DNA from: Phycisphaerales bacterium
Lineage (GTDB): Bacteria > Planctomycetota > Phycisphaerae > Phycisphaerales > UBA5793
Direction: 5' to 3'
DNA length: 64,000 bases
Assembly: GCA_020852515.1 (NCBI GenBank)
Contig: JADZAS010000013.1
Location: 310,001 to 374,000, forward strand
A program made the position numbers and the translations under genes. The notes beneath the pieces were generated by a model that was given only the letters and a program-made list of their open reading frames with translations, ran no database searches and had not been told where the DNA came from. This document shows, one piece after another, positions 12,228 to 32,015 of this stretch. Each line of letters opens with the position of its first letter. Positions within the stretch are counted from its first letter, which is position 1.

Positions 12228-12275
12228 TTGAACGCCCGGCTGCCACCCCAGCCGGCCAACGTGCCCCAGCCGATC

Positions 12276-14045: not shown

Positions 14046-14220
14046 GAGCGAGCCCGAGTGACACCGCAGACAAGCACATGCCAAACAATCGTACCAGTCC
14101 CGTTTTCCTGCCCGGCGCGTCCATGATCGGCTCGTTCGTGCCGCGCCCGAACGCGCCGACGACAGACTGTAACTGCGCGCCGCGGCCGTGATTTGCCGCT
14201 TGATCAGAAAGGACTTGCAC

Positions 14221-15618: not shown

Positions 15619-15630
15619 GAGCGAGGCCAG

Positions 15631-15720
15631 GGATTAGGCACTTGGCATTAGGCATTAGGGAAAGGCAGCGAGGCGCCGAGGCGCCGAGGAGAGGCATCAG
15701 GCACTTGGCATCAGGCAGCG
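15631..15720. repeat. Two short arrays of a 7-bp repeat (GGCAYTA type)
   Basis: 15631-15660 reads as GGATTA, GGCACTT, GGCATTA, GGCATTA, GGG. 15693-15720 reads as GGCATCA, GGCACTT, GGCATCA, GGCAGCG. The same heptamer in reverse complement (TARTGCC) forms arrays at 58902, 59039 and 59791. Between the two arrays lies a GAGGCGCC doublet. Confidence 0.75.
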
Positions 15721-15946
15721 AAGGCGAGAGCCGGAATCCACTTGATCGGACACGAAACCGGCTTTGGGGCTGCAACGCGTGCGAACCCGTTTTGACGCCT
15801 CGCTCGATGCCTGCCTTCGCGGGCATGACGCCGAGAACGTGATCGCCGAGGCACCGGGCAATTGAACCCGGACCGCGACTGCGGCTCGCGGCTACCGTTG
15901 TCGCGTCCTGCTGCGACGTGTGACCGTTCTGTTTCGAGCGCACCTG
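15721..15946. other. Spacer with a dispersed hairpin
   Basis: At 15807-15826 ATGCCTGC and GCGGGCAT form an 8-bp stem (one G-T pair) with a CTTC loop. Its translation, MPAFAGM, is the familiar signature of a repeat scattered through many bacterial genomes. It may terminate transcription from the HAF pair. No gene is seen. Confidence 0.4.
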
Positions 15947-17278: not shown

Positions 17279-17299
17279 TGGCCGCCGGCGCATCGCGAC

Positions 17300-17671
17300 T
17301 CAGCCGGGGTGCTGATGCCTCGACGTCTCGATCTTCTCGAGGGCATCCACGACGAGGCCGGCGTAGCGGCTCAGCGGGCACTGCCGCGTGGCGCGCGGCA
17401 GACAGAAGTCGCCCGCCGTCGGATCGCTGTGGCACGACTGGCAGATGAGTTCGCGCATGGCGTCTTCATACGGCTTCATCGATTCGGAGTGAATCTGATG
17501 CACGATCAGCCGGATGCGCGGCAGGTTCTGAAAGATCGTGCACGCCGCCTCGCATGGGCGCGGCTCGTCGAGCGGCCAGTCGCCCTCGGCCGGCTCGCGC
17601 TGGCTGCACTGGGTGCACACTTCGGCGCGCACGCCGCGCTTCATCACTTCGAGTGTGGGAAGATGTTGCAT
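17300..17671 (-). CDS. Small cysteine-rich protein at the end of the Ccm operon
   Basis: 123 residues without signal peptide or membrane helix. Eight cysteines fall in two sets: CTQC and CEAAC in the first 45 residues, and CQSCH followed by two single cysteines in the last 50. The CQSCH motif could hold heme, but without an export signal metal or Fe-S binding is as likely. It ends the minus-strand Ccm operon, 39 bases after ccmD, with a GGGGGT ribosome site before ATG 17671. The position suggests a role in heme handling or thiol chemistry for cytochrome c assembly. It does not match CcmH (no LRCxxC plus membrane helix). I do not recognise a named family. Confidence 0.65.
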   Translation of the reverse strand: MQHLPTLEVMKRGVRAEVCTQCSQREPAEGDWPLDEPRPCEAACTIFQNLPRIRLIVHQIHSESMKPYEDAMRELICQSCHSDPTAGDFCLPRATRQCPLSRYAGLVVDALEKIETSRHQHPG

Positions 17672-17710
17672 GGCGGACCCCCCGGGCTCATTGGCCCGCA
17701 GGAAAGTGGA

Positions 17711-17839
17711 TCAGAAGTTGCCTCGGCCGCGGCCGGGGCGCGTGAGCCGGGAATGCTCCAGCCACGTCCACAGCGCAAAGCCGCCGATGAGAATGAAACT
17801 CACTGCATAAGCGAGAATGGCATATTGCGTTGCGTTCAC
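17711..17839 (-). CDS. ccmD: CcmD-like heme exporter subunit
   Basis: A 42-residue single-helix protein. One hydrophobic segment (YAILAYAVSFILIGGFALW) is followed by a basic tail (RLTRPGRGRG), the usual form of CcmD, which helps release holo-CcmE from the CcmABC transporter. It starts with GTG 17839 overlapping the ccmC stop by four bases (GTGA), with GGAGG upstream. Such a small gene is easily missed. Identification rests on size, topology and place directly after ccmC; sequence conservation in CcmD is low. Confidence 0.8.
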   Translation of the reverse strand: MNATQYAILAYAVSFILIGGFALWTWLEHSRLTRPGRGRGNF

Positions 17840-18537
17840 GCCTGACCTCCTGCCGGCACGAGGCGCGGCTCATCAAGTTCTTCGGCCGGTTCGCTCGCGG
17901 CCCGCTGCAGCCGGTTGATCCGCATCGACGCCACGAGCAGGCCCGCCGCAAGCATCGTCATCGGAACGAACCACGCCAGCAGCGTCAGGCGCATCTCCGG
18001 CGCCATCGAGATCGACTTGGGGTGAATGTCGGGCAGCAGTTTAGTGGACAACCACACGAGCGGCACATCCATGAATGCGATTACGCCATACACGGCGCAG
18101 ATGAGCGCCCGCCGCTGGCTCGACTCGATCGACGGCCGGATCATGAGATAGACGACGTAGAGCAGCCAGAGGATCAGGCTGAAGGTGAGGCGCGGCGTCC
18201 ACTGCCACCACGCGCCCCACGCGCTGCGACCCCAGATCATGCCCGTGAGCAGCACGATGCTCGCCAGTAGCACGGCCACTTTGGCGGCGGCAAAGCCAAG
18301 ATCATCCCACCACGAGCGGCGCTGCAGCAGGTACATCACGCTGGCAATGAACACCACGAAGCAGGCGACGAACGTGTTGATCGCCGCGGGAAGGTGGATG
18401 TAGAACACCTTCTGCACGTCGCCCATCGTCTCCTCGCGCGGCGTCCACCAGACCATCATGGCGGTCACCGCGGCGAGCAGGCCAAACGTCACCACCCAGT
18501 AGACCGGGCCGACGATTCGCACAGGTGTCGATTTCAT
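17836..18537 (-). CDS. ccmC: Heme transporter CcmC
   Basis: A 233-residue, six-helix inner-membrane protein of System I cytochrome c maturation. It presents heme to CcmE on the outer face of the membrane. The tryptophan-rich motif is present as WGAWWQWTPRLT; the usual Asp of the WD motif is replaced by Thr. The two heme-ligand histidines are visible in FYIHLPAAINTF and LPDIHPKSI. The start is ATG 18537 with AAGGAGTT upstream. It lies 14 bases after ccmB and overlaps ccmD. Confidence 0.94.
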   Translation of the reverse strand: MKSTPVRIVGPVYWVVTFGLLAAVTAMMVWWTPREETMGDVQKVFYIHLPAAINTFVACFVVFIASVMYLLQRRSWWDDLGFAAAKVAVLLASIVLLTGMIWGRSAWGAWWQWTPRLTFSLILWLLYVVYLMIRPSIESSQRRALICAVYGVIAFMDVPLVWLSTKLLPDIHPKSISMAPEMRLTLLAWFVPMTMLAAGLLVASMRINRLQRAASEPAEELDEPRLVPAGGQA

Positions 18538-18551
18538 CGCAGAACTCCTTT

Positions 18552-19229
18552 TCACGCTTCGAGCACGACATCGAACACGAGCCACGAAGCAGCCAGAAAC
18601 ATCAGATCGAACGCGATCAGCAGCGCCAGGCCGCTGCCGGCCAGCGACGTGCCGTGCTCGAACAGATTCGCCAGCACGCGCGTCGAGATGAGAACGACCG
18701 GCAGCGTGATGGGGAACACGAGCATCGCGAGCAGTCCGCCCGCCAGGCGCGTGCTGCTGGTCAGGGCAGCAAAGAGCGTGCCTACCGCGGCGTAGCCGAT
18801 CATGCTGACGGCCATGACCAGCGCAAAGCCGCCTGGCGCCACCGAAAGATCAAACTGGAAAAACATGATGCCCACCGGCGTCACGACCAGCGCCAGCGCG
18901 AACATGAGCACGAGATTGGCCAGCAGTTTGGCGATGTAGATCGAGCCGCGATCGATCGGCGCCAGCAGCAGGCCGGCCAGGGCGTCATCGTGGCGCTCGA
19001 CGGCCATGGTCTTTTCGAAGATGAGCACGCCGCCGAACAGGTACGCCACCCAGAGAATGGCCGTAGCGGTCAAGCCGCCCGCACCGCCGCCCGAGCCCAG
19101 CCCGAGCGCCAGCACGACGACGATGAGCACCGCGAGCACCACGACCAGTCCAATCGTCTGCCGGCCGCGCGCTTCGATGCGCAGGTCCTTGAGCGTCAGC
19201 ATCGTGATGTGGCGGATCGCGCGTGTCAT
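18552..19229 (-). CDS. ccmB: Heme ABC exporter membrane subunit CcmB
   Basis: 225 residues with six hydrophobic segments, the usual CcmB length. Typical features include the N-terminal cytoplasmic stretch (TLKDLRIEARGRQ), the segment ILWVAYLFGGVLIFEKTM with RHDDALAGLLLAPID after it, and FPITLPVVLI in the C-terminal half. With CcmA and CcmC it forms the complex that uses ATP to free holo-CcmE. ATG 19229 overlaps the ccmA stop by four bases, so translation is coupled. Confidence 0.94.
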   Translation of the reverse strand: MTRAIRHITMLTLKDLRIEARGRQTIGLVVVLAVLIVVVLALGLGSGGGAGGLTATAILWVAYLFGGVLIFEKTMAVERHDDALAGLLLAPIDRGSIYIAKLLANLVLMFALALVVTPVGIMFFQFDLSVAPGGFALVMAVSMIGYAAVGTLFAALTSSTRLAGGLLAMLVFPITLPVVLISTRVLANLFEHGTSLAGSGLALLIAFDLMFLAASWLVFDVVLEA

Positions 19230-20053
19230 CGCTGCTCGATCTCCCGCAACACCTGCTCGACCGTCAGCTCGCACGCGGCGGCGTCGAGCGCCAGCCGCCC
19301 TTTGCGCAGAACCAGCACGCGCTCGGCCAGCCTCAGGGTCTGGCGCACGTCGTGGTTGGCCAGGAGCACTGCCATGCCTTGCTCATTGAGTTGGGCCATG
19401 AGTCGCTCCACCGTGTCCACCGACGGCGCATCGAGCCCGGCGAACGGCTCATCGGCGAGCAGCAGCCGCGGCTCGTGAAGAAGCGCCCGAGCGATGGAAA
19501 CCCGTTGGACCATGCCTCGACTGAATGTCTTGACAGGGTCGTGCGCCCGATCCACAAGGCCCACGAAATCGAGCAGGTCCATCGCCCGGGCGCCTGGCTC
19601 GGAAAGATCATGAAGCCGGCCGAAGAATACGAGATTCTCCAGGGCCGAAAGGTCTCGATAGAGCATCGACTGGTGGCCGATGAGCCCGATGCCGGCCCGG
19701 ATGAGCGCGCCCTGGCGGCGCGAGTTGCGGCCGAAGATCTCGAGTTCGCCTCGCGTGGGCGTGGTGAGCGTCGAGAGCAGCCGCAGCAGCGTCGTCTTGC
19801 CGGCGCCGTTGGCGCCCAGCAGCGCCGCGTAGCAGCCGGCTGGCACATCAAACGTCAGGTCGCGCAGGATCGGTCGATCATCGAGCACCTTGTGCACGCC
19901 CACGGCGCGCACCGCCGGCAGCGCCGCCGCGCTCTCGCTCTGTGCGAGGCGAAGTGTGCGGCCGGAGTCGGACTGCCCAGAACGGGCCTCGATCGCCCCG
20001 GCTCGACTGAACCGCGGGGTGTCCGCATGCTGGATGGTGAGTGGAGCCGTCAT
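19226..20053 (-). CDS. ccmA: Heme ABC exporter ATP-binding protein CcmA
   Basis: An ABC ATPase with Walker A GANGAGKTTLL, signature FSRGMVQRVSIAR, Walker B LLLADEPFAGLDAP and the H-loop NHD. It powers release of heme-loaded CcmE together with CcmB, CcmC and CcmD. At 275 residues from ATG 20053 it carries about 45 residues before the first strand of the ABC domain, which most CcmA proteins lack. No clear ribosome site precedes ATG 20053, so a downstream GTG could be the real start. It follows the unknown exported protein gene by 12 bases. Confidence 0.93.
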   Translation of the reverse strand: MTAPLTIQHADTPRFSRAGAIEARSGQSDSGRTLRLAQSESAAALPAVRAVGVHKVLDDRPILRDLTFDVPAGCYAALLGANGAGKTTLLRLLSTLTTPTRGELEIFGRNSRRQGALIRAGIGLIGHQSMLYRDLSALENLVFFGRLHDLSEPGARAMDLLDFVGLVDRAHDPVKTFSRGMVQRVSIARALLHEPRLLLADEPFAGLDAPSVDTVERLMAQLNEQGMAVLLANHDVRQTLRLAERVLVLRKGRLALDAAACELTVEQVLREIEQR

Positions 20054-20065
20054 GGCGGTGGTGCT

Positions 20066-21196
20066 TCAGTTCGTCGCCTGCGCCTGGCGCGGCGCCTTGA
20101 GGAAGATCGCCGCGATGCCTGCCAGCAGCACGATGCCGCCGCCGATCGCCGCGAACAGTTTGATCTGCGAGTTCGTCTGGCTCACGGATGCGAGGTCAGC
20201 CGAAGCCGGCAGCGCGCCGATCGACAGGCCGACGAGTTGCCCCGGCTCCATCGCGTCCGCCTGGAACATGCGAACGTTGGCCTGCCCCATGGGCTCGGAG
20301 CCGGCGTCAATCATGCCCTTCAATTCCACTTCGCTGCCGTCATCGACGAAGAACGCGACCATGTTGTCGGTCGGCGCCGGCGCCGAAACGAACAGTTCCG
20401 ACGCGTCCTGGCCATTGGGAACGAGATACGCGAACGTGAACTGACTGCGTCCGGGCATCATGGGCATCTGCACGCTCAGCAGCCCGTCAGGATCCAGCCG
20501 CGTGCAGCACCAGCCGTGAAACCCGCCGACCAGTTGCACCTGAGCGGCGCCCTTGGGCAGGCGGAACTGTGCCGCATCGCGCTTGGGCTCGGGGGAGTCA
20601 TCGACGGGCGCGCCGAGCCACGTGCTCTGAGCCGGGTTGTTGGTAATGACCGTCTCGTGCACGAGGATGCCTTCGGCGCTGCGCTCGATCTGCACGTGCC
20701 GCATGGCGATGTGCCAGTCCGGGCGCTCGTCGGTCGTGTCATAGACCGTCACTTCAACGGTGGTTTCCGGCGAAGCGGGTGAGATCGCCGTGCCCGTGTT
20801 CTGGTAATGCACGCCGGCGAACCCGACCTGCACGACCGGCGTGACGTCCATCGCCACCGGCAGATTCTCGAAGACAACAACGCCGTGCTCGTCGAGTTCG
20901 GCCTGCTGCGAGTGAACGACCTGGCCGCGATGCACCAGCAGAATCTCCACCGGCGCCACGCCCACTTCGGTCCCATACGGCGTGCCCTGAACGGCTCGCA
21001 CCGCGACGCGGCCGATCGCGGCCTGCGCCATCCGCTCGCGCAGCGCCGCTTCATCGAGCGGCGTCGGCTGCACGGCGCCGGCGGGATCGGCCGCCGGGGG
21101 AGCGCCCGCGTCGGGATTGGCGCCGGGCGCGATCTGCCCGAAGGCGGCGGCAGAGCAACTCGTGATCATCGCGGAGAGAAGCAGAAGACGTTTCAT
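20066..21196 (-). CDS. Exported, membrane-anchored protein inside the Ccm operon
   Basis: 376 residues. A signal peptide ends near AAAFGQ, then comes a Pro/Ala-rich stretch, a large periplasmic beta-rich region, and one C-terminal helix (LFAAIGGGIVLLAGIAAIF) with a short basic tail, so it is anchored with its body outside. A CC pair (HGWCCTRLDPDG, near residue 240) is the only cysteine motif noticed. GGAAGGTGA precedes ATG 21196. It lies between ccmF and ccmA in an otherwise canonical operon that lacks ccmG, ccmH and ccmI, so it may act in apocytochrome or thiol handling. No similarity to CcmH or CcmI is seen. Confidence 0.72.
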   Translation of the reverse strand: MKRLLLLSAMITSCSAAAFGQIAPGANPDAGAPPAADPAGAVQPTPLDEAALRERMAQAAIGRVAVRAVQGTPYGTEVGVAPVEILLVHRGQVVHSQQAELDEHGVVVFENLPVAMDVTPVVQVGFAGVHYQNTGTAISPASPETTVEVTVYDTTDERPDWHIAMRHVQIERSAEGILVHETVITNNPAQSTWLGAPVDDSPEPKRDAAQFRLPKGAAQVQLVGGFHGWCCTRLDPDGLLSVQMPMMPGRSQFTFAYLVPNGQDASELFVSAPAPTDNMVAFFVDDGSEVELKGMIDAGSEPMGQANVRMFQADAMEPGQLVGLSIGALPASADLASVSQTNSQIKLFAAIGGGIVLLAGIAAIFLKAPRQAQATN

Positions 21197-21231
21197 GGAT
21201 TCACCTTCCAGCAGTGTGGTCAAAGAGGGGG

Positions 21232-23424
21232 TCACGAAGGGCACGAAGCAGGTGCGGCCGGCCCGGTGCGCAGATCGCCTGTGGAGGAAGCAGCCCTGGT
21301 GAGCGCGGCTGCAGGCGCCGGCGCCGTCGCCGGGCGCTGCCGCCGTCGTGGTCCGCCACCGGAAGTAGTGCTGTCCTCGCTGTCGTCTGGTCGCATCGAC
21401 GAACCTTCGTTGGCCGCAGGTGTCATGCCCTTCGTGCGCCCCTCCTGTGTGAGTTTACCGTTCGAGGCGGCGCTCGCCGCCTTACTGAGTCTCGGGAGCA
21501 TGCAGATGATCGAACCGATGACCAGGATCGTCGAACCGATCCAGATCCACATCGTGAGCGGGTTAATGATCACCTTGATCGCCGTCACCTTCCCGGCCGC
21601 TTCCCAGCCGGCGAGGATGAGGTAGAGATCTTCGCGCCAGTTCGAGCGAACCGCCACCTGGGCCGACGGCTCATCGGGGCGCTTGTCGTAGAAGCGCCGC
21701 TCGGGCGACACATCCACAACTTTGCCCCCCGGCAGCGTCGCTTCGATCGACGCGACCACGGCGGTGTAGTTCTCGCGAGGCACTTCCTCAAGGCCGTTGA
21801 ACTTAAGCGTGTAGCGCCCGGCCTGGAACGACTCGCCGGGACCGACCTGGTGCGTGCTCTCCTCGGGGAAGAGGCTCGATCCGGCAAAGCCGATGACCAT
21901 GAGCGCGACGCCCAGGTGAACCACAAAGCCGCCCCAGCGGCGATGGTTCGAGTCGAGCAGCCTCCAGGCGACGGGCAGCGCGCCCGCGCCGCTGTGTGCT
22001 CGCTCGGCGCGAACGCAGTGAGCGAAGTGCACGAGCACCGCGATGACGGTCACCGCCGCAAACAGCGTGACGAGCAGCGCCCAGATGTTGTGCACGCCCA
22101 GCAGCGCGGCAGCGGCCGTCAGCGCCGCACCGGCGATGCCCGGGCCGATCAGGCTGCGGCCGAGCCGCTTGCCGGCTTCGTGGCCGTAGACCAGCGCCGG
22201 CGCCGTGGCCATCAGGCCGATGAGAACCAGCCCGATGGGCGCCACCGTGTTGTTGTAGAACTTCGGCCCAACCGTCATTTCATTCGCGAACGTGCGGCTG
22301 ATCACCGGCCACATCGTGCCCAGCAGCGTGATGGCCGTCATGATGACGAGCAGCACGTTGGCGATGAGCACCACGCCCTCGCGCTCGAGCATGCTCGACA
22401 GCCGACGCTGCGGCGCCAGGCTCGACCAGCGCCAGGCGAACACCGCAGCGCTGCCGACGACGAGCAGAATGATGAACGCGAAGAAGAACGTGCCCACAAG
22501 CGACTCGCCGAACGAGTGCACCGAGGACACCACGCCGCTTCGCGTGATGTAGGTGCCGAAGATGCACAGGATGAAGCTCGTCGCGACCAGCGCCACGTTC
22601 CAGCGCTTGAACACGCCGCGGTGGTCCTGCATGATGACCGAGTGCAGCAGCGCCGTACCCGTGAGCCACGGCAGCAGCGAGGCATTCTCGACCGGGTCCC
22701 AGCCCCAGTAGCCGCCCCAGCCCAGTTCGATGTACGCCCACCACGCGCCGATCATGATGCCTGCGCCCAGCGTGACCCAGGAGAAGAGCACCCAGCGGCG
22801 GATGTCGGTCAGCCAGCGCGCATCGGTGCGCCGCTCGGCCATGGCGCCGATCATCACGGCGAATGGAATGGCAAAGCCGGCGTAGCCGAGGAACAGCGTC
22901 GGCGGGTGGATGATCATCGCCAGGTCCTGCAACTGCGGGTTCAGGCCCTTGCCGTCGGCGGGCGCGAGGCCTGTGACCACTTCAAAGGGGTTGGCCGCAA
23001 AGAGCAGCAGCGCGCCAAAGAAGCCGCAGATGGCGCCGAGCACGCCGATCGTCACCGCTTCGCCCGTGCCGCGATTGGCCCGTCGGCTCACGATCGCGAT
23101 CGTGCTCATCCAGGCGATCATCCCGCCCCACAGCAGCAGGCTGCCTTCCTGACCGGCCCAGAACGCCGCAAACTTGAATCCCACGGGCAGAGCCCGCTCC
23201 GTGTAGGACGCAACATAAGCGAGCCGGAAGTCGCTCTGGAGCAGTGCGACCAGCAGCAAGGCGCTCGCGGCGGTGAGGCACGCAGCAAAGGCGCCCACGC
23301 CCCATCGCGCGGCGCTGAGCGCCCGCGATGACTGCAGCCGCACTGCGGCGAGGCTGGCGATGATCACCGCCATGCAGGCGAGCGTCGCCACGGCGAGGAT
23401 GGATGTGCCGATCGTCGGGATCAT
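21232..23424 (-). CDS. ccmF: Cytochrome c heme lyase subunit CcmF
   Basis: A 730-residue polytopic membrane protein that attaches heme to apocytochromes. The heme-binding tryptophan-rich loop reads WWAYIELGWGGYWGWDPVEN. Further CcmF hallmarks are FWAGQEGSLLLWGG, HPPTLFLGYAGFAIPFA and FGTYITRSGVVSSVHSF. The C-terminal periplasmic domain follows (residues about 530-640), then a last helix. The final 60 residues are Ser/Pro/Arg-rich and fall partly on a dispersed repeat (CACGAAGGGCACGAAG near 21230), so the extreme C-terminus is probably not conserved. ATG 23424 overlaps the ccmE stop by four bases. Confidence 0.95.
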   Translation of the reverse strand: MIPTIGTSILAVATLACMAVIIASLAAVRLQSSRALSAARWGVGAFAACLTAASALLLVALLQSDFRLAYVASYTERALPVGFKFAAFWAGQEGSLLLWGGMIAWMSTIAIVSRRANRGTGEAVTIGVLGAICGFFGALLLFAANPFEVVTGLAPADGKGLNPQLQDLAMIIHPPTLFLGYAGFAIPFAVMIGAMAERRTDARWLTDIRRWVLFSWVTLGAGIMIGAWWAYIELGWGGYWGWDPVENASLLPWLTGTALLHSVIMQDHRGVFKRWNVALVATSFILCIFGTYITRSGVVSSVHSFGESLVGTFFFAFIILLVVGSAAVFAWRWSSLAPQRRLSSMLEREGVVLIANVLLVIMTAITLLGTMWPVISRTFANEMTVGPKFYNNTVAPIGLVLIGLMATAPALVYGHEAGKRLGRSLIGPGIAGAALTAAAALLGVHNIWALLVTLFAAVTVIAVLVHFAHCVRAERAHSGAGALPVAWRLLDSNHRRWGGFVVHLGVALMVIGFAGSSLFPEESTHQVGPGESFQAGRYTLKFNGLEEVPRENYTAVVASIEATLPGGKVVDVSPERRFYDKRPDEPSAQVAVRSNWREDLYLILAGWEAAGKVTAIKVIINPLTMWIWIGSTILVIGSIICMLPRLSKAASAASNGKLTQEGRTKGMTPAANEGSSMRPDDSEDSTTSGGGPRRRQRPATAPAPAAALTRAASSTGDLRTGPAAPASCPS

Positions 23425-23867
23425 TGGTCGCTGTCTCCGTAAGCGTCGGCGCCGTCTTCCGCCATTTCGCTGGCGTGCGGCGACGACGGGTCGTACTTGC
23501 TGGCGCACTTGGTCAGCAGCATGTCAGACTGAAATACGCCGTTCTCATCGAGCGCGCCTTCGACCACGACCTCGTGGCCGGGCTTGAACATGTCCGGCAC
23601 CGCGCCCTTGTATTCGACGCGCAGGCTCTTGCCGCTGCTCACGAGATCAAACTTCGCGTACAGCAGGCCCGGGTTGCAATCCACGTTCTCCAGACCCACG
23701 CTGCCCGTCAGGCGCACGCGGCGGGAATGAAACTCCGCCTTCTCGATGAACGCATCGGCGTCCATCGAATAGACCCAGCCGGTTCGCACGCCGGCCTGCA
23801 CGAGGTAGACCACCGCTCCGCCGATGACCAGCAGGGCGATGACGACTTTGGTTCGGATGCTTGTCAT
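23421..23867 (-). CDS. ccmE: Heme chaperone CcmE, CxxxY variant
   Basis: 148 residues: one N-terminal membrane helix (VVIALLVIGGAVVYLV) and a periplasmic OB-fold domain. In classical CcmE a His in the motif HxxxY binds heme covalently. Here the equivalent site is LLTKCASKYDP, that is Cys121-x3-Tyr125. A CxxxY CcmE is known from a variant System I in archaea and some bacteria, for example Desulfovibrio, reported to lack CcmH. That matches the gene content here. It is the first gene of the operon, with GGAG upstream of ATG 23867, and is divergent from the cytochrome cluster. Confidence 0.92.
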   Translation of the reverse strand: MTSIRTKVVIALLVIGGAVVYLVQAGVRTGWVYSMDADAFIEKAEFHSRRVRLTGSVGLENVDCNPGLLYAKFDLVSSGKSLRVEYKGAVPDMFKPGHEVVVEGALDENGVFQSDMLLTKCASKYDPSSPHASEMAEDGADAYGDSDQ

Positions 23868-24389: not shown

Positions 24390-25043
24390 ATGAAACGGCG
24401 CCATTTGATCCACCTCACCACCATGACCGTACTCGCGTGCGGCGCAGCGGGAGCCAACGCCCAGATCGTGGGAAGCGCTCACGACTTCACCAACGCGGGC
24501 TGGGCTGACAACCAGATCTGCAAACCCTGCCACACCCCGCACAACGCCATGACCGTTGACATCAACGGCTACGGCACCGACCGGCTGTGGAACCACGCTC
24601 TGCCCGCACAGAGCCAGGTCTACAACACCAACGAAGGCGACCTCACCCGTGACGAAGCCCTCGACGCCAAGAGCATCCTCTGCATGGGCTGCCATGACGG
24701 CACCGTCGCCCTCGACTCCTTCGGCGGCGTGAACGGCAGCACGATGATCTTCGGAAACGCGCTCATCGGCACCAACCTGACCAACGACCACCCGATCGGC
24801 GGCGCTGCTGTGTGGGACCCGACCTATGAAGGAAGCCGCTACAACCCGCGCCTCACGTGGGAGAACTCAACGATCGGCGGCGACAGAATGGGCCGCCTCC
24901 AGGACATGCTCGTCAACGGCCAAGTCGAATCGGTCATCAGCTGCGTCACCTGCCACGAGCCTCACCGCCGCGGCGGCAATGACTTCCTGACCCGGGTTGA
25001 CAATACCGGAAGCGCCATGTGCCTCGCCTGCCACATCAAGTGA
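24390..25043 (+). CDS. OmcE-like tetraheme c-type cytochrome, possible nanowire subunit
   Basis: 217 residues with a signal peptide (cleavage near GANA-Q) and a mature part of about 193 residues. Four heme motifs are at residues 44-48 (CKPCH), 98-102 (CMGCH), 185-189 (CVTCH) and 211-215 (CLACH). The pattern VGSAHDFTNAG, CHTPHNA, LWN, CHDGTVAL, NLTNDHPI, CHEPH and terminal CLACHIK follows, as I recall it, the layout of Geobacter OmcE. OmcE is a tetraheme protein that polymerises into extracellular filaments. The same module begins the 12-heme cytochrome at the end of this cluster. AAAAGGAGAT precedes ATG 24390. A strong hairpin follows the gene, consistent with higher expression than downstream genes. 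A periplasmic shuttle is the alternative. Confidence 0.85.
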   Translation: MKRRHLIHLTTMTVLACGAAGANAQIVGSAHDFTNAGWADNQICKPCHTPHNAMTVDINGYGTDRLWNHALPAQSQVYNTNEGDLTRDEALDAKSILCMGCHDGTVALDSFGGVNGSTMIFGNALIGTNLTNDHPIGGAAVWDPTYEGSRYNPRLTWENSTIGGDRMGRLQDMLVNGQVESVISCVTCHEPHRRGGNDFLTRVDNTGSAMCLACHIK

Positions 25044-25076
25044 CACGCGGCCTGGCTTGAATCAGATCTCTTCACC

Positions 25077-25119
25077 TTCCCCCTCCCGGGCGTTGATCGG
25101 CGCGGCCCGAGAGGGGGAA
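25077..25119 (+). promoter_or_regulatory. Long intergenic hairpin between the cytochrome and NHL genes
   Basis: The arms TTCCCCCTCCCGGGC (25077-25091) and GCCCGAGAGGGGGAA (25105-25119) pair over 15 positions with one mismatch, around a 13-base loop. No T run follows, so this is more likely an mRNA-stabilising or partly terminating stem than a full terminator. It would raise the level of the upstream tetraheme cytochrome relative to the rest of the operon. Confidence 0.6.
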
Positions 25120-25228
25120 CGGCTTGACGGACTCGATAATGGAATTGGAGCCGCCCGCCCCCACCCGTCGTCGTCCTGATCGAGCCCCCCGAAACATCGC
25201 GCCCTTTGAGACACGAAAGGGCATGGCC

Positions 25229-26473
25229 ATGACCTCTCGCATGCACATCCCATCTCGTCGCCGCATCGGTTCCGCCGCGTTGCTCGCCCTCGCCTTGCTG
25301 GCGATGACTGCCGGCTGCTCGTCGAACCCGAAGACCACTGAGGCACCGACCGCGGTCGCCACCGAGTACGCCTTCTGGCCGCCCTATCCCGACGAGCCGC
25401 GCCTGCAGTACGTCGTCTCGTTCAAGCACAGCGGCCAGATCGCCCCGCGAAAGTCCAGCGCGCTTGAGGACATCATCTACGGCAAGGAAACCAACGTTGA
25501 CGCCGCGGTCAACAAGCCCTATGGCGTAGAGATGTGGAACGGCCGCATCTACACCTGCGATATCCGCGGCGGCGCCGTCATGGTCTTCGACCTCCGCAAG
25601 AAGCAGACGCGCATCATGGGAACCACCGGCCGGGAAATCCTCGTCCGCCCCACTGACATTGCCATCTCCGACGACGGCACGAAGTACGTCGCCGACCTCG
25701 GCCGCAACCTCATCTTCGTCTTCGACGCCGATGAGCGCTTCGTCCGGACCATCGGCATGAAAGACCTGCAGCCGGCGGGCCTGGCCGTGTTCGACGATCG
25801 CCTGTATGTGAGCAACTTCGTCGGACAGCGCGTTGAGATCTTCGATCGCCGCAACGGCAATCACCTCGGTTCCTTCGGCGAACCCGGAGACGGGGACGGC
25901 CAGTTCGTCCGCCCGCTGGGCATCGAAGTTGACGCCCAAGGCAACATTTACGTCACCGACGTCATCCGCTGCCGGCTTCAGAAGTTCAGCCCCGAAGGCG
26001 AGTTCCTCCTGGGCTTTGGCGTCATCACCAACAACATCGGTTCGTTCGTGCGGCCCAAGCACATCGCCGTGGACAAGGAAGGCACGATCTACGTCGTGGA
26101 CGCCTCGTTCCAGAACGTGCAGCTCTTCAGTCCCGAGGGCTACATCCTCACCTTCTTCGGCGCGGCCGGCGCGCACCCGGGCGCCATGTTCCTCCCCGCC
26201 GGAATCACGATTCACTACGGCGACATGGACCTCTTCAAGCCCTACATTCACCCCGACTTCGAGGCCCAGTACCTCGTGCTCGTCACCAACCAGTTCGGCG
26301 ACGACAAGGTTTCCGTCTACGCTTTCGGGCAACTCAGGCCGGGCGTCAGTGTTGAGGCGATCCGGGCCAGTCAGGCCGATATCAACCTGGGAGTCGAGGA
26401 TGCCGACAAAGCCCAAGGCGTCAATCCCGAAGTCACCCCTGATGACGAGCAGCCTTCAGACCTGAAACCGTGA
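25229..26473 (+). CDS. NHL-repeat beta-propeller lipoprotein
   Basis: 414 residues. The basic N-terminus and hydrophobic core end in MTAGC (Cys30), a lipobox-like site, so the mature protein is probably lipid-anchored. The conserved opening FWPPYPDEPRLQYV is followed by six or so NHL blades (for example RPLGIEVDAQGNIYVTD and RPKHIAVDKEGTIYVVD) over residues 85-370. The start at 25229 is preferred because GAAAGG lies eight bases upstream; ATG 25223 is also possible. A second NHL lipoprotein with the same DEPR-x-x-Y opening lies four genes on. NHL propellers act in protein contacts, so a scaffold or docking role for the cytochromes is inferred. Confidence 0.85.
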   Translation: MTSRMHIPSRRRIGSAALLALALLAMTAGCSSNPKTTEAPTAVATEYAFWPPYPDEPRLQYVVSFKHSGQIAPRKSSALEDIIYGKETNVDAAVNKPYGVEMWNGRIYTCDIRGGAVMVFDLRKKQTRIMGTTGREILVRPTDIAISDDGTKYVADLGRNLIFVFDADERFVRTIGMKDLQPAGLAVFDDRLYVSNFVGQRVEIFDRRNGNHLGSFGEPGDGDGQFVRPLGIEVDAQGNIYVTDVIRCRLQKFSPEGEFLLGFGVITNNIGSFVRPKHIAVDKEGTIYVVDASFQNVQLFSPEGYILTFFGAAGAHPGAMFLPAGITIHYGDMDLFKPYIHPDFEAQYLVLVTNQFGDDKVSVYAFGQLRPGVSVEAIRASQADINLGVEDADKAQGVNPEVTPDDEQPSDLKP

Positions 26474-26487
26474 GGGATGCGTGATCG

Positions 26488-27144
26488 ATGGCGAATCGAT
26501 CGACCGGTCATGGATACCGCGCTGTCGGCTGGACCCTTGCGCTGGCCGTTCTCACCCTGTGGAGTTGCGGCACACCCGAGGAACGCTACCGAACCCTGAG
26601 CATCTTCTTTGACGACGTGCCGATGCCCGAGTCGATGCGGCCCACCATCGACGAGCCCGGCGGCGACCGCGTCGCCATCTCCGTCATCACCCACGCCCCC
26701 TTCGCCAACGAACAGTGCAGCGACTGCCACGGCGAAGTCGGCAAATTCACCATGTCGCTCGAAGGCTACTCCGGCGTCACCTCCAACGTCTGCCTCAAGT
26801 GCCACGAGGGCAAGTCTACTGAGCATCCGATCATGCACGGCCCGGTTGCCGCCGGCGAGTGCCTCGCCTGCCACGAGCCGCACGAATCGCGCTACCCGCA
26901 CCTGCTCAAGCGCGCCAGCCCGACGCTGTGCCTCGAATGCCACGTCGGGGCTGAGGTCCAGGCCGGCGGCGCGCCCGAGCACGCCGACCTCGCCGTGGAC
27001 TGCCTCAACTGCCACTCGGGCCACGGGAGCGAACTGCCCTATTTCCTTCGCATACCACTCGCGCCCGAGGCGCCCCCGGCGGATCAGCCCGCCGAAGAAG
27101 TGACGCCCGGCGGCGCGGCGGATGAATCCGGGGCCGGCTCATGA
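26488..27144 (+). CDS. Pentaheme c-type cytochrome lipoprotein
   Basis: 218 residues. The hydrophobic leader ends at Cys27 (LTLWSCG), giving a probable lipoprotein. Five CxxCH motifs are at residues 77-81 (CSDCH), 102-106 (CLKCH), 125-129 (CLACH), 148-152 (CLECH) and 172-176 (CLNCH), with extra histidines (EPHE, GPV region) as likely sixth ligands. The close spacing is that of small multiheme electron-transfer proteins. The tail is Pro/Glu-rich. Its stop overlaps the porin start (ATGA), so the two are translated together. In porin-cytochrome conduits a periplasm-facing multiheme protein plugs the barrel; this gene is the best candidate. Confidence 0.88.
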   Translation: MANRSTGHGYRAVGWTLALAVLTLWSCGTPEERYRTLSIFFDDVPMPESMRPTIDEPGGDRVAISVITHAPFANEQCSDCHGEVGKFTMSLEGYSGVTSNVCLKCHEGKSTEHPIMHGPVAAGECLACHEPHESRYPHLLKRASPTLCLECHVGAEVQAGGAPEHADLAVDCLNCHSGHGSELPYFLRIPLAPEAPPADQPAEEVTPGGAADESGAGS

Positions 27145-29177
27145 AGTCGCGCGGCGCCCAGCATCGCGCCGGCGCCGCGGCCACGGCTGCTGCGGCCGCC
27201 TTTGGCGTCGCCGCCGCCGCTCTCGCGCAGGATCCCGCCCCTCCCGAAGAAGGCGGGCCCATCGTCGTCGGCGAACGCCAAGAGCAGTTGGACTCATTCG
27301 TCATCCAGCGCTTCCGCACCGCGCTCGAATTCCTCTATCGCTACCGCACCGACGAGCGCAAGCGGCCCGGCGAGCCGACGACGCGCGAGACCGAAGAGAT
27401 CATCCGACCCAGTGTCGAGTTCTCCACCGACGCCTACATCGTCCACCCCAACTTCATTCAACTCTCCTTCACCGGCGGCCTGCAACTTGACCACACCACG
27501 CTCGACAGCACCACGCTCAATCTCAACGAAGACACCACCACCCTCGACACCAACTACGACTTCCGCGCCTTCATCCTCGGCGAGTCGTCGCTTCCGGTCA
27601 CGCTCTACTCCCGCCGCTCGCAGACGAACATCGACCGTCTCTTCGGCCCCTCGCTCGACTCCACGCTGACCGAGCACGGCGGCATCGCGCAGTTCGTCAA
27701 CGATCGCGCTCCGACCACGATCCAGTTGTTCCACCGCGATCAGCAGCAGACCGATGCGGGCGGTCAGACGGACTTCGGCGTCGTGCAGGACACCTTCGAC
27801 GTCCACAGCAACATCCGCGTCGCTGACCGCCAGTCTTTGAGCCTCGACTACACGCTCGACTCCATCCGGCAGTCCGGTGCCGGCCGCCGCGCCCAGGACT
27901 TCATCCGCCACGACGCCACCGCCCTGCACGTGCTCGACTTCGGCGACCGCGACAGCCTCCGCTCGCAACTCCGCCTGTTCGACCAGAGCGGCGACTCGCA
28001 ACTGCGGCGCATCAGCCTGGACGAATCGCTGCGGCTCTATCACAGCGAAACGCTCCAGACCCGCTACGACCTCTTCTACGAGAACCAGTCGCGCGCCGAT
28101 TCCAACCAGGACTTCCTGCGCGGCAACTTCAACGTCCGCCACCGCCTCTTTGGCAGCCTCGTCACCAGCGCCAACATCGGCGCCTCCACCCTCAACACCG
28201 ATGGCTTCACCAGCAACGAGTACTACGGCGACGTGACTTTCGACTACACGAAGAAAGTGCCCTATGGCATCTTCACCGCCTCGGCCAGCGTCAGCGAAAA
28301 CATCCGCGATAACGGGCCGCGCGGCACGCCGCTGCGCATCTTTGACGAATCGCGCACCTTCAACGACCCCGCCCCCATCACCATCGCCAGGCAGAACATC
28401 CTGCCCGGATCCATCGTCATCACCGACATCAGCGGCCTCACCTTCTACGACGAAGGGCTCGACTACACCCTGATGGTGTTCTTCGACCGCGTCGAGATCC
28501 GCCGCGTGGTCGGCGGCAGCATTGTCGATGGCCAGACCGTACTCATCGACTACACCATCGGCCCCGAGTCGGCCAACACCATCACCACCACCGGCCTGGG
28601 CTTCAGCGCCCGCTACAGCATCAACGACGGCTTTCTCAATGGCCTGGGCCTGTACATGCGCTACCTGCAGCGCGATGCGAGCATCGACAGCCCGCGGCCG
28701 AGCGAGTTCATCCTCGACGACTCGCGCGACCTCATCTTCGGCGCCGACTACATCACCGGTCCGCTTTCGCTCAATGCTGAGTACGAGACCTACGACAGCG
28801 TCGTCTCCCCGTTTGACGCCACGCGCTTCGAGGCCCGGTACGTGCACACGCTGGGCCGGTTCTCCTCGCTGAGCCTGCTGGGCAGTTACCAGATGATCGA
28901 CTACCCGTCGCTCGACAACCACGTCGATCTCGCCACGGTCACCGCGTCGTGGAACCAGCAGTTGACAAACCAGTTGCGCCTCAACGCTCAACTGGTCTGG
29001 CGCGATGAACGCGACGATCTCCAGGGACACACCCAGGGCTTCGAGCAGCGAATAAACTTGAACTGGCGCTACCGCCAGACGGAGATCTATGTCTCCGGAC
29101 GCAACTCGATCTTCGATTCCTCAGCGGAAGAGCGGCTGGCGCAGAGCGTCGAAGTCGGCTTCCGCAGGACCTTCTGA
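27141..29177 (+). CDS. Outer-membrane beta-barrel protein of the porin-cytochrome conduit
   Basis: 678 residues with a signal peptide (cleavage near AAALAQ). The rest alternates polar and hydrophobic residues throughout, with aromatic girdle residues, as in transmembrane beta strands. It ends in Phe (VGFRRTF), the classical signal for outer-membrane barrel assembly. There are no cysteines of heme type. Length and context match the porin of porin-cytochrome conduits, where a barrel of 20 or more strands holds a multiheme cytochrome in its lumen. It overlaps the pentaheme gene by four bases and is followed seven bases later by the second NHL lipoprotein. An unrelated porin function is less likely given the context. 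Confidence 0.82.
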   Translation: MKSRGAQHRAGAAATAAAAAFGVAAAALAQDPAPPEEGGPIVVGERQEQLDSFVIQRFRTALEFLYRYRTDERKRPGEPTTRETEEIIRPSVEFSTDAYIVHPNFIQLSFTGGLQLDHTTLDSTTLNLNEDTTTLDTNYDFRAFILGESSLPVTLYSRRSQTNIDRLFGPSLDSTLTEHGGIAQFVNDRAPTTIQLFHRDQQQTDAGGQTDFGVVQDTFDVHSNIRVADRQSLSLDYTLDSIRQSGAGRRAQDFIRHDATALHVLDFGDRDSLRSQLRLFDQSGDSQLRRISLDESLRLYHSETLQTRYDLFYENQSRADSNQDFLRGNFNVRHRLFGSLVTSANIGASTLNTDGFTSNEYYGDVTFDYTKKVPYGIFTASASVSENIRDNGPRGTPLRIFDESRTFNDPAPITIARQNILPGSIVITDISGLTFYDEGLDYTLMVFFDRVEIRRVVGGSIVDGQTVLIDYTIGPESANTITTTGLGFSARYSINDGFLNGLGLYMRYLQRDASIDSPRPSEFILDDSRDLIFGADYITGPLSLNAEYETYDSVVSPFDATRFEARYVHTLGRFSSLSLLGSYQMIDYPSLDNHVDLATVTASWNQQLTNQLRLNAQLVWRDERDDLQGHTQGFEQRINLNWRYRQTEIYVSGRNSIFDSSAEERLAQSVEVGFRRTF

Positions 29178-29184
29178 GGGCCAC

Positions 29185-30321
29185 ATGCCAGCAACGCTGC
29201 GCGGCTCCAACCCGATCGCTCTCTGCACCGCACGCGCCCTGTCCGCTGCCGCTCTGCTCGCCGCGCTGCTGCTGGTGCCGATGGGCTGCGCCAAGCCGGC
29301 GGGCGAACTCTTCCCGCCGCTGGCCGCGCCGCTAAGTTGGCCCAACCCGCCCGACGAGCCGCGCATCCACTACGTCGGCCAGATCGCCACCACCGCCGAT
29401 CTCAAGGCCGCCAAACCCTTCGGCGAAGCGCTGCGCGAGCTCTTCGCCGGCAAGCAGCCGATCCTCGGCATCGTCAGCCCCATGGCCGTTGAGTTCGACG
29501 ATCAGCAGCGCCTCTACGTGGCCGACACGGCTGCGCGCGTCGTGCACGTCTTCGATCTCGACAAGCGCAAGTACGAACAGTGGATGCCCCCGGCGCCCGA
29601 CACCTTCATCACCCCCGTCGGCCTCGCGCGCGCCGGCGATGGCCGCCTCTTCGTGGCCGACTCGTCCACGGGCGTGGTCTGGCTGTTCGACTCGACCGGC
29701 CGGAGCATCGGCATGTGGGGGCTGGGCCATCTCATCCGCCCCTGCGGCCTGTCGTTCGACGAAGCCGGCCAGCGCCTCTTTGTCGCCGACGCCGGCGCGC
29801 ATCGCATCGCCATCTTCGGCCCCGGCGGCGAACTGCTGTCCACGCTCGGCTCGCGCGGCACGGCGCCCGGCTCGTTCAACTTCCCCACCGACGTGGTTAT
29901 CGATCATCAGGGCCGGCTCTACGTTTCCGACTCACTCAACTGCCGCATCCAGCAGTTCGGCTCCGATCTCATGCCGCGACGGCAGATCGGCAGCCGGGGC
30001 GACCTGCCCGGCTACTTCTCGCGCCCCAAGGGCATCGCCGTGGACAGCGCCGACCACCTCTATGTCGTCGACGCCCAGTTTGAGGCGGTGCAGGTCTATT
30101 CGAGCGAGGGGCAGCTCCTCATGGCCTTCGGGCGCGAAGGGCGCGGCCCGGGCGAGTTTTGGCTGCCCGCGGGCATGTGCATCGACGACAGCGACCGGCT
30201 GTGGATCGCCGACACGTACAATCGCAGGGTGCAGGTCTTCGACTACCGCCCGCCGGCGCCCACCAGCGACACCGGCCCCAACCCCGGCCCAAGCCCTGCG
30301 CCCAAGGGAGTGACGCCATGA
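29185..30321 (+). CDS. Second NHL-repeat beta-propeller lipoprotein
   Basis: 378 residues. The leader ends in LLLVPMGC (Cys35), a lipobox-like site. The opening SWPNPPDEPRIHYVGQI matches that of the first NHL protein, showing they are paralogues. Six NHL blades follow (MAVEFDDQQRLYVAD, FPTDVVIDHQGRLYVSD, RPKGIAVDSADHLYVVD), ending in a Pro-rich tail. The start at 29185 lies just past the porin stop, with GAGGG between. Its stop overlaps the ATG of the 12-heme cytochrome. Probably a scaffold on the membrane surface for the cytochromes. Confidence 0.86.
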   Translation: MPATLRGSNPIALCTARALSAAALLAALLLVPMGCAKPAGELFPPLAAPLSWPNPPDEPRIHYVGQIATTADLKAAKPFGEALRELFAGKQPILGIVSPMAVEFDDQQRLYVADTAARVVHVFDLDKRKYEQWMPPAPDTFITPVGLARAGDGRLFVADSSTGVVWLFDSTGRSIGMWGLGHLIRPCGLSFDEAGQRLFVADAGAHRIAIFGPGGELLSTLGSRGTAPGSFNFPTDVVIDHQGRLYVSDSLNCRIQQFGSDLMPRRQIGSRGDLPGYFSRPKGIAVDSADHLYVVDAQFEAVQVYSSEGQLLMAFGREGRGPGEFWLPAGMCIDDSDRLWIADTYNRRVQVFDYRPPAPTSDTGPNPGPSPAPKGVTP

Positions 30322-32015
30322 ACAGATCCGTTCACACTCTCAGTATCTGTTTGAACGCCGCCGGGGTGCCGTGGTCGAAGCGACGCTCTGGGAGCGCCGG
30401 CCACGCGAGCACTCTCATCGCGCTCGCATTCATCTTCATCGCCGCATCAGCCGCGACGGCGCAGCAGCAGAGCGTCGTCGATTCCGTGCACAACCTTTCC
30501 GCCAGCGGGCCCGGCGAAGTTCGCGCCGCGGCGGAGGAGCAGGTGTGCATCTTCTGCCACACGCCCCACCACGCCTCGCCGATCGTGCCGCTCTGGAACC
30601 GTTCGATGCCGCTGGACGCCTACACGCCCTACACCAGCCGCGCGCTCGACGCCGAGCCCGGCCAGCCGACCGGCGATTCAAAAATGTGCCTGTCGTGCCA
30701 CGACGGCACGATCGCGCTGGGCGCGGTGCTCTCGCGCCCCAACCCGATCGTCATGCGCAGCGGCATCACCGTCATGCCGCCGGGCGGCTCCAATCTCGGC
30801 ACCGATCTCTCCGACGATCATCCCGTCTCGTTCCGCTACACCTCGGCCCTGGCGGCGCAGGATCAGCATCTCCGCCTGCCGGCCAACCTGCCGCCGGAGG
30901 TGCGCCTCGACGCGAACCAGGAGATGCAGTGCACAACGTGCCACGATCCGCACAACAACGCGCTGGGCGATTTCCTCGTGATGCACAACGAGGATTCAAA
31001 CCTGTGCCGCGCGTGCCACCAGATCGACTCGACTGACATCCTCGGCCACAGCAACTGCAGCGCCTGCCATACGCCCCACACCGCCGCCAGCGGGCCGTAC
31101 CTCCTGCGCGGCACGAACATCACCGAATCATGCATGGATTGCCACGACGGCACCGTCCCTGACGCGCCCAACATCAGCCCCGACCTGCACAAGATCAGCG
31201 TGCACGACACCAACCGCGACATCGACCCGAGCGAGCCGATTCCCTTTGACGTCACCTGCACCGACTGCCACGAGCCGCACACGATGAAGCACGGCAGCGC
31301 ATCGGCCCCGCAGGCGCCGCTCAACTTCGGCGACGCCAGCGGCGTCACGCTCACCGGCGCCATCATCCCCGTCGCCCAGTTCGAGTATGAAGTCTGCTTC
31401 AAGTGCCACGCCGACCGCAGCGCCGTGCCGCCCGTGGTTACGCGCCAGGTGATGACGGACAATCTGCGTTACAAGTTTGACTTCACCGCCGTGTCCTATC
31501 ACCCCGTCGCCGCGACCGGCCGCAACAACGACGTGCCGAGCCTGCGGCCGCAGTGGACCACGGCGAGCATGATCTACTGCTATGACTGCCACAACTCCGA
31601 CGCGGGCGTCCGCAGCGGCGGCGGCGGGCCCGACGGCGTGCACGGCTCGAGCCACGCGCCCCTGCTCGCGCGCCAGTATTCGATGATCGACTACACGAGC
31701 GAGAGCGCGACGAGTTACGCGCTGTGCTACCACTGTCATGAACGCAACAGCATCCTTGGCGACGAGTCGTTCCCGACGCACCGCAAGCACATCGTCGATG
31801 AGCGCACCACCTGTTCGACCTGCCACGATGCGCACGGCATCTCCTCGCACGGCAGCACGATCAACAACAGCAACCTCATCAACTTCGACCTGTCGATCGT
31901 CTTCCCCGACCCGTCCTCAGGGCGCCTCGAGTTCATCGACCAGGGCCGCTTCGCCGGCCAGTGCTTCCTCAGCTGCCACGGCGAAAACCACTCGCCACGC
32001 GCGTATGGGGATTGA
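30318..32015 (+). CDS. Large multiheme c-type cytochrome (11 CxxCH plus one CxxxCH)
   Basis: 565 residues with a signal peptide core at 32-48 (cleavage near ATAQ). Residues 57-236 form an OmcE-like tetraheme module (VHNLSASGPG, CIFCHTPH, CLSCHDGTIALG, DLSDDHPVSF, CTTCHDPH, CRACH). A second part holds CSACH (247), CMDCH (272), CTDCH (314), CFKCH (360), CYDCH (421), CYHCH (470) and CSTCH (499), plus an unusual CFLSCH (549-554). Its place after the porin and its size suggest the outward-facing cytochrome of the conduit. An odd basic insert at residues 16-31 in the leader derives from a dispersed repeat. ATG overlaps the NHL stop; AAGGGAG is upstream. Confidence 0.88.
   Translation: MNRSVHTLSICLNAAGVPWSKRRSGSAGHASTLIALAFIFIAASAATAQQQSVVDSVHNLSASGPGEVRAAAEEQVCIFCHTPHHASPIVPLWNRSMPLDAYTPYTSRALDAEPGQPTGDSKMCLSCHDGTIALGAVLSRPNPIVMRSGITVMPPGGSNLGTDLSDDHPVSFRYTSALAAQDQHLRLPANLPPEVRLDANQEMQCTTCHDPHNNALGDFLVMHNEDSNLCRACHQIDSTDILGHSNCSACHTPHTAASGPYLLRGTNITESCMDCHDGTVPDAPNISPDLHKISVHDTNRDIDPSEPIPFDVTCTDCHEPHTMKHGSASAPQAPLNFGDASGVTLTGAIIPVAQFEYEVCFKCHADRSAVPPVVTRQVMTDNLRYKFDFTAVSYHPVAATGRNNDVPSLRPQWTTASMIYCYDCHNSDAGVRSGGGGPDGVHGSSHAPLLARQYSMIDYTSESATSYALCYHCHERNSILGDESFPTHRKHIVDERTTCSTCHDAHGISSHGSTINNSNLINFDLSIVFPDPSSGRLEFIDQGRFAGQCFLSCHGENHSPRAYGD
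30364..30409. repeat. Dispersed repeat copy inside the signal-peptide region of the large cytochrome
   Basis: GGTGCCGTGGTCGAAGCGA and the following GAGCGCCGGCCACGCG match the intergenic copy at 32070-32118 with one indel and about four substitutions. Here it encodes residues 16-31 (GVPWSKRRSGSAGHAS), ahead of the hydrophobic core. Confidence 0.7.

What the first reader, a model, noticed from the sequence alone, without database searches (positions are those of the whole stretch)
24390..32015. Porin-cytochrome conduit with NHL scaffolds in a probable planctomycete
Six consecutive plus-strand genes encode a tetraheme cytochrome, an NHL lipoprotein, a pentaheme lipoprotein, a 678-residue outer-membrane barrel ending in Phe, a second NHL lipoprotein, and a cytochrome with 11 CxxCH plus one CxxxCH. 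Several starts overlap the preceding stops (pentaheme to porin, NHL to large cytochrome). This is the gene content of a porin-cytochrome conduit for moving electrons across the outer membrane, best known from Geobacter and Shewanella. Here it carries two paralogous propeller proteins and about 20 hemes. Divergent from it is a full cytochrome c maturation operon. To my knowledge such conduits are little described in Planctomycetota.
Basis: partly seen in the sequence, partly recalled or inferred. Interest (0 to 1): 0.9.

Follow-up and report, generated by a model that had tools for sequence, protein, structure and literature searches.

The report
Planctomycete nanowire-type outer-membrane electron conduit
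Six adjacent genes in a Phycisphaerales planctomycete look like a device for passing electrons through the outer membrane onto OmcE-type extracellular cytochromes; it is a relative of the described Uet and OmcE systems, and one cytochrome that fuses an OmcE-like unit to eight further heme sites suggests a testable answer to how cytochrome nanowires attach to cells.

Summary
In detail: six plus-strand genes at 24390-32015, with 4 + 5 + 11 CxxCH sites plus one CxxxCH, two NHL propellers, a 678-residue barrel ending in Phe, and two ATGA overlaps. The barrel models well (pLDDT 87.7), and MtrB is tied for its best structural match. The pentaheme lipoprotein matches MtrA of the Mtr complex (E 2.5e-26).

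The tetraheme protein matches OmcE (PDB 7TFS) over its full length. The 12-site protein carries an OmcE domain at its N-terminus (profile E 1.8e-41) followed by eight more heme sites.

The cassette is conserved in about 11 phylum-level groups. All 81 homologues of the large cytochrome examined have 11 CxxCH plus one CxxxCH. It is related to the published Uet pathway (tetraheme, two NHL, undecaheme, porin). It differs in having an MtrA-like pentaheme where Uet has triheme cytochromes and a PPIase, and its barrel is not recognisably UetC.

Best reading: an Uet-like trans-outer-membrane conduit whose large cytochrome may couple the MtrA/barrel wire to an OmcE-like filament. Filament formation and docking are inferred. 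Verdict: real, a new variant of a known kind.

The parts
24390..25043 (+). E4: OmcE-family tetraheme cytochrome, secreted (SpI-type signal, no lipobox)
   Evidence: 4 CxxCH; full-length match to OmcE 7TFS: E 7.8e-13 single sequence, E 4.2e-34 profile; 4 proximal + 4 further invariant His in 18 homologues
25229..26473 (+). N1: NHL six-bladed propeller lipoprotein paired with E4
   Evidence: Pfam NHL E 3.2e-18; lipobox in 55/62 homologues; E4-N1 adjacent in 55 cases over 81 loci
26488..27144 (+). M5: pentaheme lipoprotein, half-size relative of MtrA
   Evidence: 5 CxxCH; MtrA 6r2q_A profile E 2.5e-26; exactly 5 proximal + 5 further invariant His; replaced by a decaheme of two such units in 11 loci of relatives
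27141..29177 (+). BARREL: outer-membrane beta-barrel, about 26-28 long strands, with a conserved insert at about 398-473
   Evidence: AlphaFold2 pLDDT 87.7, pTM 0.76; structural matches LptD Z 17.4 and MtrB Z 17.2; no Pfam family; C-terminal Phe
29185..30321 (+). N2: NHL six-bladed propeller lipoprotein paired with the large cytochrome
   Evidence: Pfam NHL E 1e-29; N2-BIG adjacent in 76 cases over 81 loci; 37% identical to the NHL of a Uet-type cluster, E 3e-74
30318..32015 (+). BIG: 12-site cytochrome = OmcE-like tetraheme domain (about residues 45-235) + eight further heme sites (7 CxxCH + invariant CxxxCH); UetJ-like
   Evidence: profile match of the N-domain to OmcE 7TFS E 1.8e-41; 11 CxxCH + 1 CxxxCH in 81/81; 27% identical to UetJ-like proteins, E 1e-47 to 2e-49
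17836..23867 (-). Divergent cytochrome c maturation genes ccmE, ccmF, unknown gene, ccmA, ccmB, ccmC (no ccmH)
   Evidence: adjacent to the cassette in many relatives

Best explanation
This is a Uet-like trans-outer-membrane electron conduit joined to OmcE-family extracellular cytochromes. Shown by sequence or model: an MtrA-like pentaheme lipoprotein, an MtrB-sized barrel, an OmcE-family tetraheme, a 12-site cytochrome whose N-terminal third is an OmcE domain, and two NHL lipoproteins, all co-inherited as one cassette. Inferred: the pentaheme threads the barrel and carries electrons across the outer membrane. The large cytochrome receives them outside through its C-terminal eight hemes. Its OmcE domain then passes them to the tetraheme protein, which probably polymerises as OmcE does. 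The NHL lipoproteins most likely act as partners, chaperones or docking factors of the two OmcE-domain proteins, one each. On the inner side the electrons probably come from a quinol-oxidising module encoded about 95 kb away: a NapC-like multiheme protein, a b561-type and a b6/petD-type multiheme protein, and three 13-heme cytochromes. Direction (reduction of external acceptors or uptake) is not determined.
For: E4 and the BIG N-domain match OmcE 7TFS and keep all eight OmcE heme-ligand His positions. M5 matches MtrA, and sister loci carry a decaheme made of two such units. The barrel is confident, with MtrB among the top matches. Same-order cassettes recur in 20 of 96 sampled genera of the order. 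Across 81 loci the adjacencies are N2-BIG 76, M-BARREL 58, E4-N1 55. The genes fit the published Uet set and are homologous to a Uet-type cluster with PPIase, barrel and trihemes. OmcE orthologues sit beside an NHL gene, and in the one cluster read in full also beside a 748-aa ORF ending in Phe that reads as a barrel. An inner-membrane electron-entry module lies in the same genome.
Against: No complex was modelled: multimers were not available, and the AlphaFold model of the large cytochrome failed (pLDDT 39.7). Polymerisation cannot be inferred from sequence alone, because soluble OmcE-family members could exist. Nothing shows how E4 and BIG cross the outer membrane. In some Proteobacteria the cassette lacks the MtrA-like gene, so M5 is not universally required. 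Barrel fold matches also include LptD and TonB-dependent receptors, which are not electron conduits.
Confidence: 0.7

Rival explanations
1. A plain porin-cytochrome conduit: M5 in the barrel, BIG as a surface terminal reductase or oxidase, and E4 as a soluble or surface tetraheme that does not polymerise.
For: All parts of a conduit are present; OmcE-type folds need not form filaments; PCC systems without filaments are known (PMC13322032).
Against: E4 keeps full-length OmcE similarity, including the four non-CxxCH His of OmcE and the end at the last CxxCH. BIG repeats the same domain, which is unexpected if only a reductase is needed.
Confidence: 0.3
2. The barrel is mainly an export pore for E4 and BIG (nanowire secretion), with the NHL proteins as chaperones and M5 as a plug or folding partner rather than an electron wire.
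For: E4 and BIG lack lipid anchors and must cross the outer membrane; LptD and usher-type barrels are among the fold matches; M5 is missing from some proteobacterial cassettes.
Against: M sits next to the barrel in 58 cases over 81 loci and is an MtrA homologue, whose known role is conduction inside MtrB. Where it is missing, trihemes sit beside the barrel in two loci (L185, L186).
Confidence: 0.2
3. A purely periplasmic redox pathway in which the barrel is an unrelated nutrient or assembly protein.
For: Localisation rests on prediction only; CcmABCEF nearby only shows cytochrome c maturation.
Against: The barrel and the MtrA-like gene are adjacent, overlapping by 4 bases in the window, and are inherited together across phyla; distances of the parts correlate at 0.49-0.82; relatives include OmcE, an extracellular filament protein.
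Confidence: 0.07

Closest known systems
Uet (undecaheme electron transfer) pathway of Tenderiales and some Gallionella (Eddie et al. 2022, not readable here; described in PMC10734462)
   Same: Tetraheme UetA, porin UetC, two NHL proteins UetHI, undecaheme UetJ. Window proteins are homologous to the A, H/I and J members of a cluster with the Uet gene content: J E 1e-47 to 2e-49, H/I E 3e-74, A E 2e-17.
   Different: The Uet-type cluster has a PPIase and triheme cytochromes, absent here. Here an MtrA-like pentaheme stands next to the barrel; the barrel does not match the UetC-like one (best E 0.028); the large cytochrome has an invariant CxxxCH site and is shorter (565 vs about 800 aa).
OmcE cytochrome nanowire of Geobacter (PDB 7TFS)
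   Same: E4 is a full-length homologue; four hemes with the same His set; an NHL gene next to it in both.
   Different: OmcE orthologues (L172-L174) lie in another cluster: ResB/CcsB, 10-heme, 8-heme, NHL, OmcE, 748-aa putative barrel, without the large fused cytochrome.
MtrCAB / MtoAB porin-cytochrome complexes
   Same: MtrA-type cytochrome beside a barrel whose fold matches MtrB.
   Different: Pentaheme lipoprotein instead of a decaheme; no MtrC/OmcA; no barrel sequence match in the PDB or to a Pfam family.
Verrucomicrobia porin-MHC clusters (PMC5615132)
   Same: Porin plus multiheme cluster in the PVC group, proposed for extracellular electron transfer.
   Different: Described with an 8-heme periplasmic cytochrome; no NHL or OmcE-like protein is mentioned in the passages found. 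Verrucomicrobial loci here carry the cassette with 5-, 11-, 13- or 19-heme M proteins, so overlap is possible but untested.

Membership tests
Uet pathway | Undecaheme UetJ homologue | tested here: met
   BIG has 11 CxxCH (plus CxxxCH) and aligns over residues 41-477 to UetJ-like L190 (E 2e-49)
Uet pathway | Tetraheme UetA and two NHL proteins UetHI | tested here: met
   E4 vs L189 tetraheme E 2e-17; N2 vs L189 NHL E 3e-74; gene order
Uet pathway | Triheme UetDEG and PPIase UetB | tested here: not met
   The six-gene cassette has no gap that could hold them; an MtrA-like pentaheme sits there instead
Uet pathway | Barrel homologous to UetC | tested here: inconclusive
   Barrel present; no significant match to the UetC-like barrel of L189, but barrels diverge fast
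OmcE-type nanowire | Sequence homology with the OmcE tetraheme fold and its heme-ligand His set | tested here: met
OmcE-type nanowire | Polymerises with an inter-subunit His ligand | not testable with these tools
   no multimer modelling; needs cryo-EM
Porin-cytochrome conduit (Mtr type) | MtrA homologue | tested here: met
   6r2q_A E 2.5e-26, two stretches matched
Porin-cytochrome conduit (Mtr type) | Large outer-membrane barrel | tested here: met
   pLDDT 87.7; MtrB 6r2q_B Z 17.2
Porin-cytochrome conduit (Mtr type) | Cytochrome inserted in the barrel and transmembrane electron flow | not testable with these tools
   complex prediction and reconstitution not available
Geobacter Omb/Oma/Omc and Ext conduits | Homology to OmcB or Ext proteins | tested here: inconclusive
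   only weak NCBIfam hits far below cut-off for Ext families; direct comparison not done

The most novel reading that the evidence does not exclude
The large cytochrome is a dedicated adaptor. Its OmcE-like N-domain caps or seeds an OmcE-type filament while its C-terminal eight hemes plug into an MtrA/barrel conduit. The cassette would then be a complete, widely distributed nanowire-plus-socket unit, and it would show how cytochrome nanowires connect electrically to the outer membrane.
Probability: 0.4. Interest if true: 0.88.

Novelty: new variant of a known kind. Interest (0 to 1): 0.62.

Why it matters
How cytochrome nanowires are anchored and where electrons enter them is stated as open in a 2025 review (PMC12307469). 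A conserved cassette that encodes an OmcE-type subunit, an OmcE-fused multiheme, an MtrA-like wire and a barrel gives a concrete candidate. It can be tested in named strains whose genomes carry it, such as Desulforhopalus sp. IMCC35007 (full cassette) and Planctomycetales bacterium ZRK34 (decaheme variant, same order as this genome). It also points to extracellular electron transfer in Phycisphaerales and many other phyla in which it is little studied.

Tried and rejected
Structure of the large cytochrome: the AlphaFold2 model failed (pLDDT 39.7), expected for a heme-packed protein with little secondary structure, so no fold argument is made for it. Barrel by sequence: no PDB sequence match and no Pfam family. 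The NCBIfam hit to a phage tail tube (E 3.8e-4, 20 bits against a cut-off of 60) is below cut-off and was rejected as annotation. NHL hits to ScyF (113-152 bits against a cut-off of 350) were rejected as generic propeller similarity. OetABI (PMC10553843) and PCC3 (PMC5566968) were considered; no sequence comparison was possible and the described gene contents differ. A search for peroxidase-type MauG in the genome found none. Geobacter sulfurreducens itself was not identifiable among the sampled genomes; only OmcE orthologues at 51-59% identity were reached.
Full report
What is there. The six genes exist as described. In order they are called here E4 (tetraheme, 24390-25043), N1 (NHL, 25229-26473), M5 (pentaheme, 26488-27144), BARREL (27141-29177), N2 (NHL, 29185-30321) and BIG (30318-32015). 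M5/BARREL and N2/BIG overlap by ATGA. N1, M5 and N2 carry lipobox cysteines; E4 and BIG have cleavable-type signals without a lipobox, and so have nearly all their homologues. Heme sites: 4 + 5 + 11 CxxCH plus one CFLSCH, so 21 if all are filled.

Organism. The window lies in a 4.7 Mb genome of 97% completeness. The nearest named record with the cassette is Phycisphaerales bacterium UBA5793, whose contig length (222214) equals that of genus-mate G001. The planctomycete call is right.

Conservation. In 151 relatives the barrel occurs in 28 genomes, 20 of 96 genera. Nineteen-kilobase regions show the same six-gene order in most of them, with the ccm genes beside it in many. A second form in the same order has N1 divergent and a decaheme in place of M5. 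That decaheme is two pentaheme units in tandem behind the same lipobox-LSFFFDGVP start. A scan of 84,980 species genomes with the BIG profile gave 554 confirmed relatives, of which 80 loci were kept. Profile annotation of these 80 plus the window shows BIG with 11 CxxCH + 1 CxxxCH in 81 of 81. Adjacencies are N2-BIG 76, BARREL-N2 63, M-BARREL 58, E4-N1 55; 37 loci hold all six with a pentaheme M. By record titles they cover Planctomycetota, Verrucomicrobiota, Hydrogenedentes, KSB1, Calditrichota, Ignavibacteria/Bacteroidetes, Nitrospirae, Zixibacteria, Myxococcota, Desulfobacterota and Proteobacteria; MAG titles can be wrong. In a draw of 392 Planctomycetota genomes, 21 have BIG. Pairwise distances of the parts correlate at 0.49-0.82, as expected for a unit inherited together, though shared descent alone could also give this.

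What the parts are. E4 is an OmcE homologue over its whole length (E 7.8e-13 single sequence; 4.2e-34 profile), ending like OmcE just after the last CxxCH. Its family has exactly four proximal and four other invariant His, and all four others align with His in OmcE. The first 217 profile positions of BIG match OmcE at E 1.8e-41 with the same eight His; the rest carries seven CxxCH and the CxxxCH. BIG has 12 proximal and 14 other invariant His, enough for twelve bis-His hemes. M5 matches MtrA (6r2q_A, E 2.5e-26) with exactly five proximal and five other invariant His. BARREL models at pLDDT 87.7, pTM 0.76, with about 26-28 long strands. Its top structural matches are LptD (Z 17.4) and MtrB (Z 17.2), both large barrels; this supports size and fold, not function. 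AlphaFold failed on BIG.

Relation to known systems. OmcE orthologues in Desulfobacterota (51-59% identity) lie in a different cluster. In the one read in full (L173) the order is ResB, CcsB, 10-heme, 8-heme, NHL, OmcE and a 748-aa ORF ending in Phe, which I read as a barrel without having modelled it. So NHL, OmcE and probably a barrel go together there too. The published Uet pathway has UetA tetraheme, UetB PPIase, UetC porin, UetDEG trihemes, UetHI NHL and UetJ undecaheme (PMC10734462). A proteobacterial locus, L189, shows that gene content, including a rotamase-domain PPIase and triheme c7 proteins. It was identified by gene content, not by name. BIG, E4 and N2 of the window are homologous to its J, A and NHL proteins (E 1e-47, 2e-17, 3e-74), while the barrels do not match (E 0.028) and M5 has no counterpart. 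Loci L185 and L186 are intermediate: this barrel family and BIG with two trihemes in place of M. The window cassette is therefore a Uet relative with an MtrA-type wire, not a standard Uet operon and not a standard Mtr operon.

Inner side. About 95 kb away the same genome has a NapC-like 11-heme protein, a 10-heme protein fused to a b561-type domain, a b6/petD-like protein with five hemes and three 13-heme cytochromes. In many relatives 11- and 13-heme genes of this kind stand directly beside the cassette. This fits a quinol-to-surface route. The genome also has two heme-copper oxidase genes, so it can probably use oxygen as well, and electron direction stays open.

Mechanism. Shown: homologies, barrel model, co-inheritance. 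Inferred from known families: M5 inside the barrel (as MtrA in MtrB), and E4 polymerisation (as OmcE, where one heme per subunit takes a His from the neighbour; PMC12954529, PMC9473688). Hypothesis: BIG joins the two, since it is the only part that carries both an OmcE unit and extra hemes, and the NHL partners are matched one to one with E4 and BIG. Nanowire anchoring and electron entry are listed as unresolved in PMC12307469.

Judgement. Because Uet and OmcE are described, this is a new variant of a known kind. The most interesting content is the OmcE identity of E4 and of the BIG N-domain, the MtrA-like pentaheme/decaheme variation, and the breadth of the cassette. Whether the primary Uet paper already reports part of this I could not check.

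Noticed in passing
L160 (genome contig C13, 224000-243500), ORFs 5131-17921 minus: Gene group with a NapC-like 11-heme protein, a 10-heme + cytochrome b561 fusion, a b6/petD + 5-heme fusion and three 13-heme cytochromes; related 11- and 13-heme genes stand next to the cassette in other genomes. Candidate inner-membrane electron entry.
   Followed up: partly
L161:9440-10090 (contig C15, 375469-376086): A second OmcE-like tetraheme gene in the same genome; no cassette part or other multiheme gene was found in the 19.5 kb around it.
   Followed up: partly
window 27141-29177, residues about 398-473 of the barrel: A conserved insert between long strands (motif DYTV..VEIRRV.GG.I.DGQTVL.DY) holds several of the barrel family's invariant residues; with the usual topology it would face outward and could dock BIG.
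   Followed up: no
L048-L058: Sister loci with a decaheme made of two pentaheme units in place of M5, a natural series for the origin of MtrA-like decahemes by duplication.
   Followed up: partly
L172-L174: OmcE orthologues next to a 10-heme, an 8-heme and an NHL gene; in L173 also ResB/CcsB and a 748-aa ORF ending in Phe, possibly the conduit of OmcE in Geobacter relatives.
   Followed up: partly
window 20066-21244 minus: Protein of unknown family between ccmF and ccmA, conserved in relatives; no Pfam or NCBIfam match. The genome lacks CcmH.
   Followed up: no
L067 (QWIH01000001.1): Record titled Leptolyngbya sp. PLA1 carries a planctomycete-type cassette; the MAG name is probably wrong.
   Followed up: no
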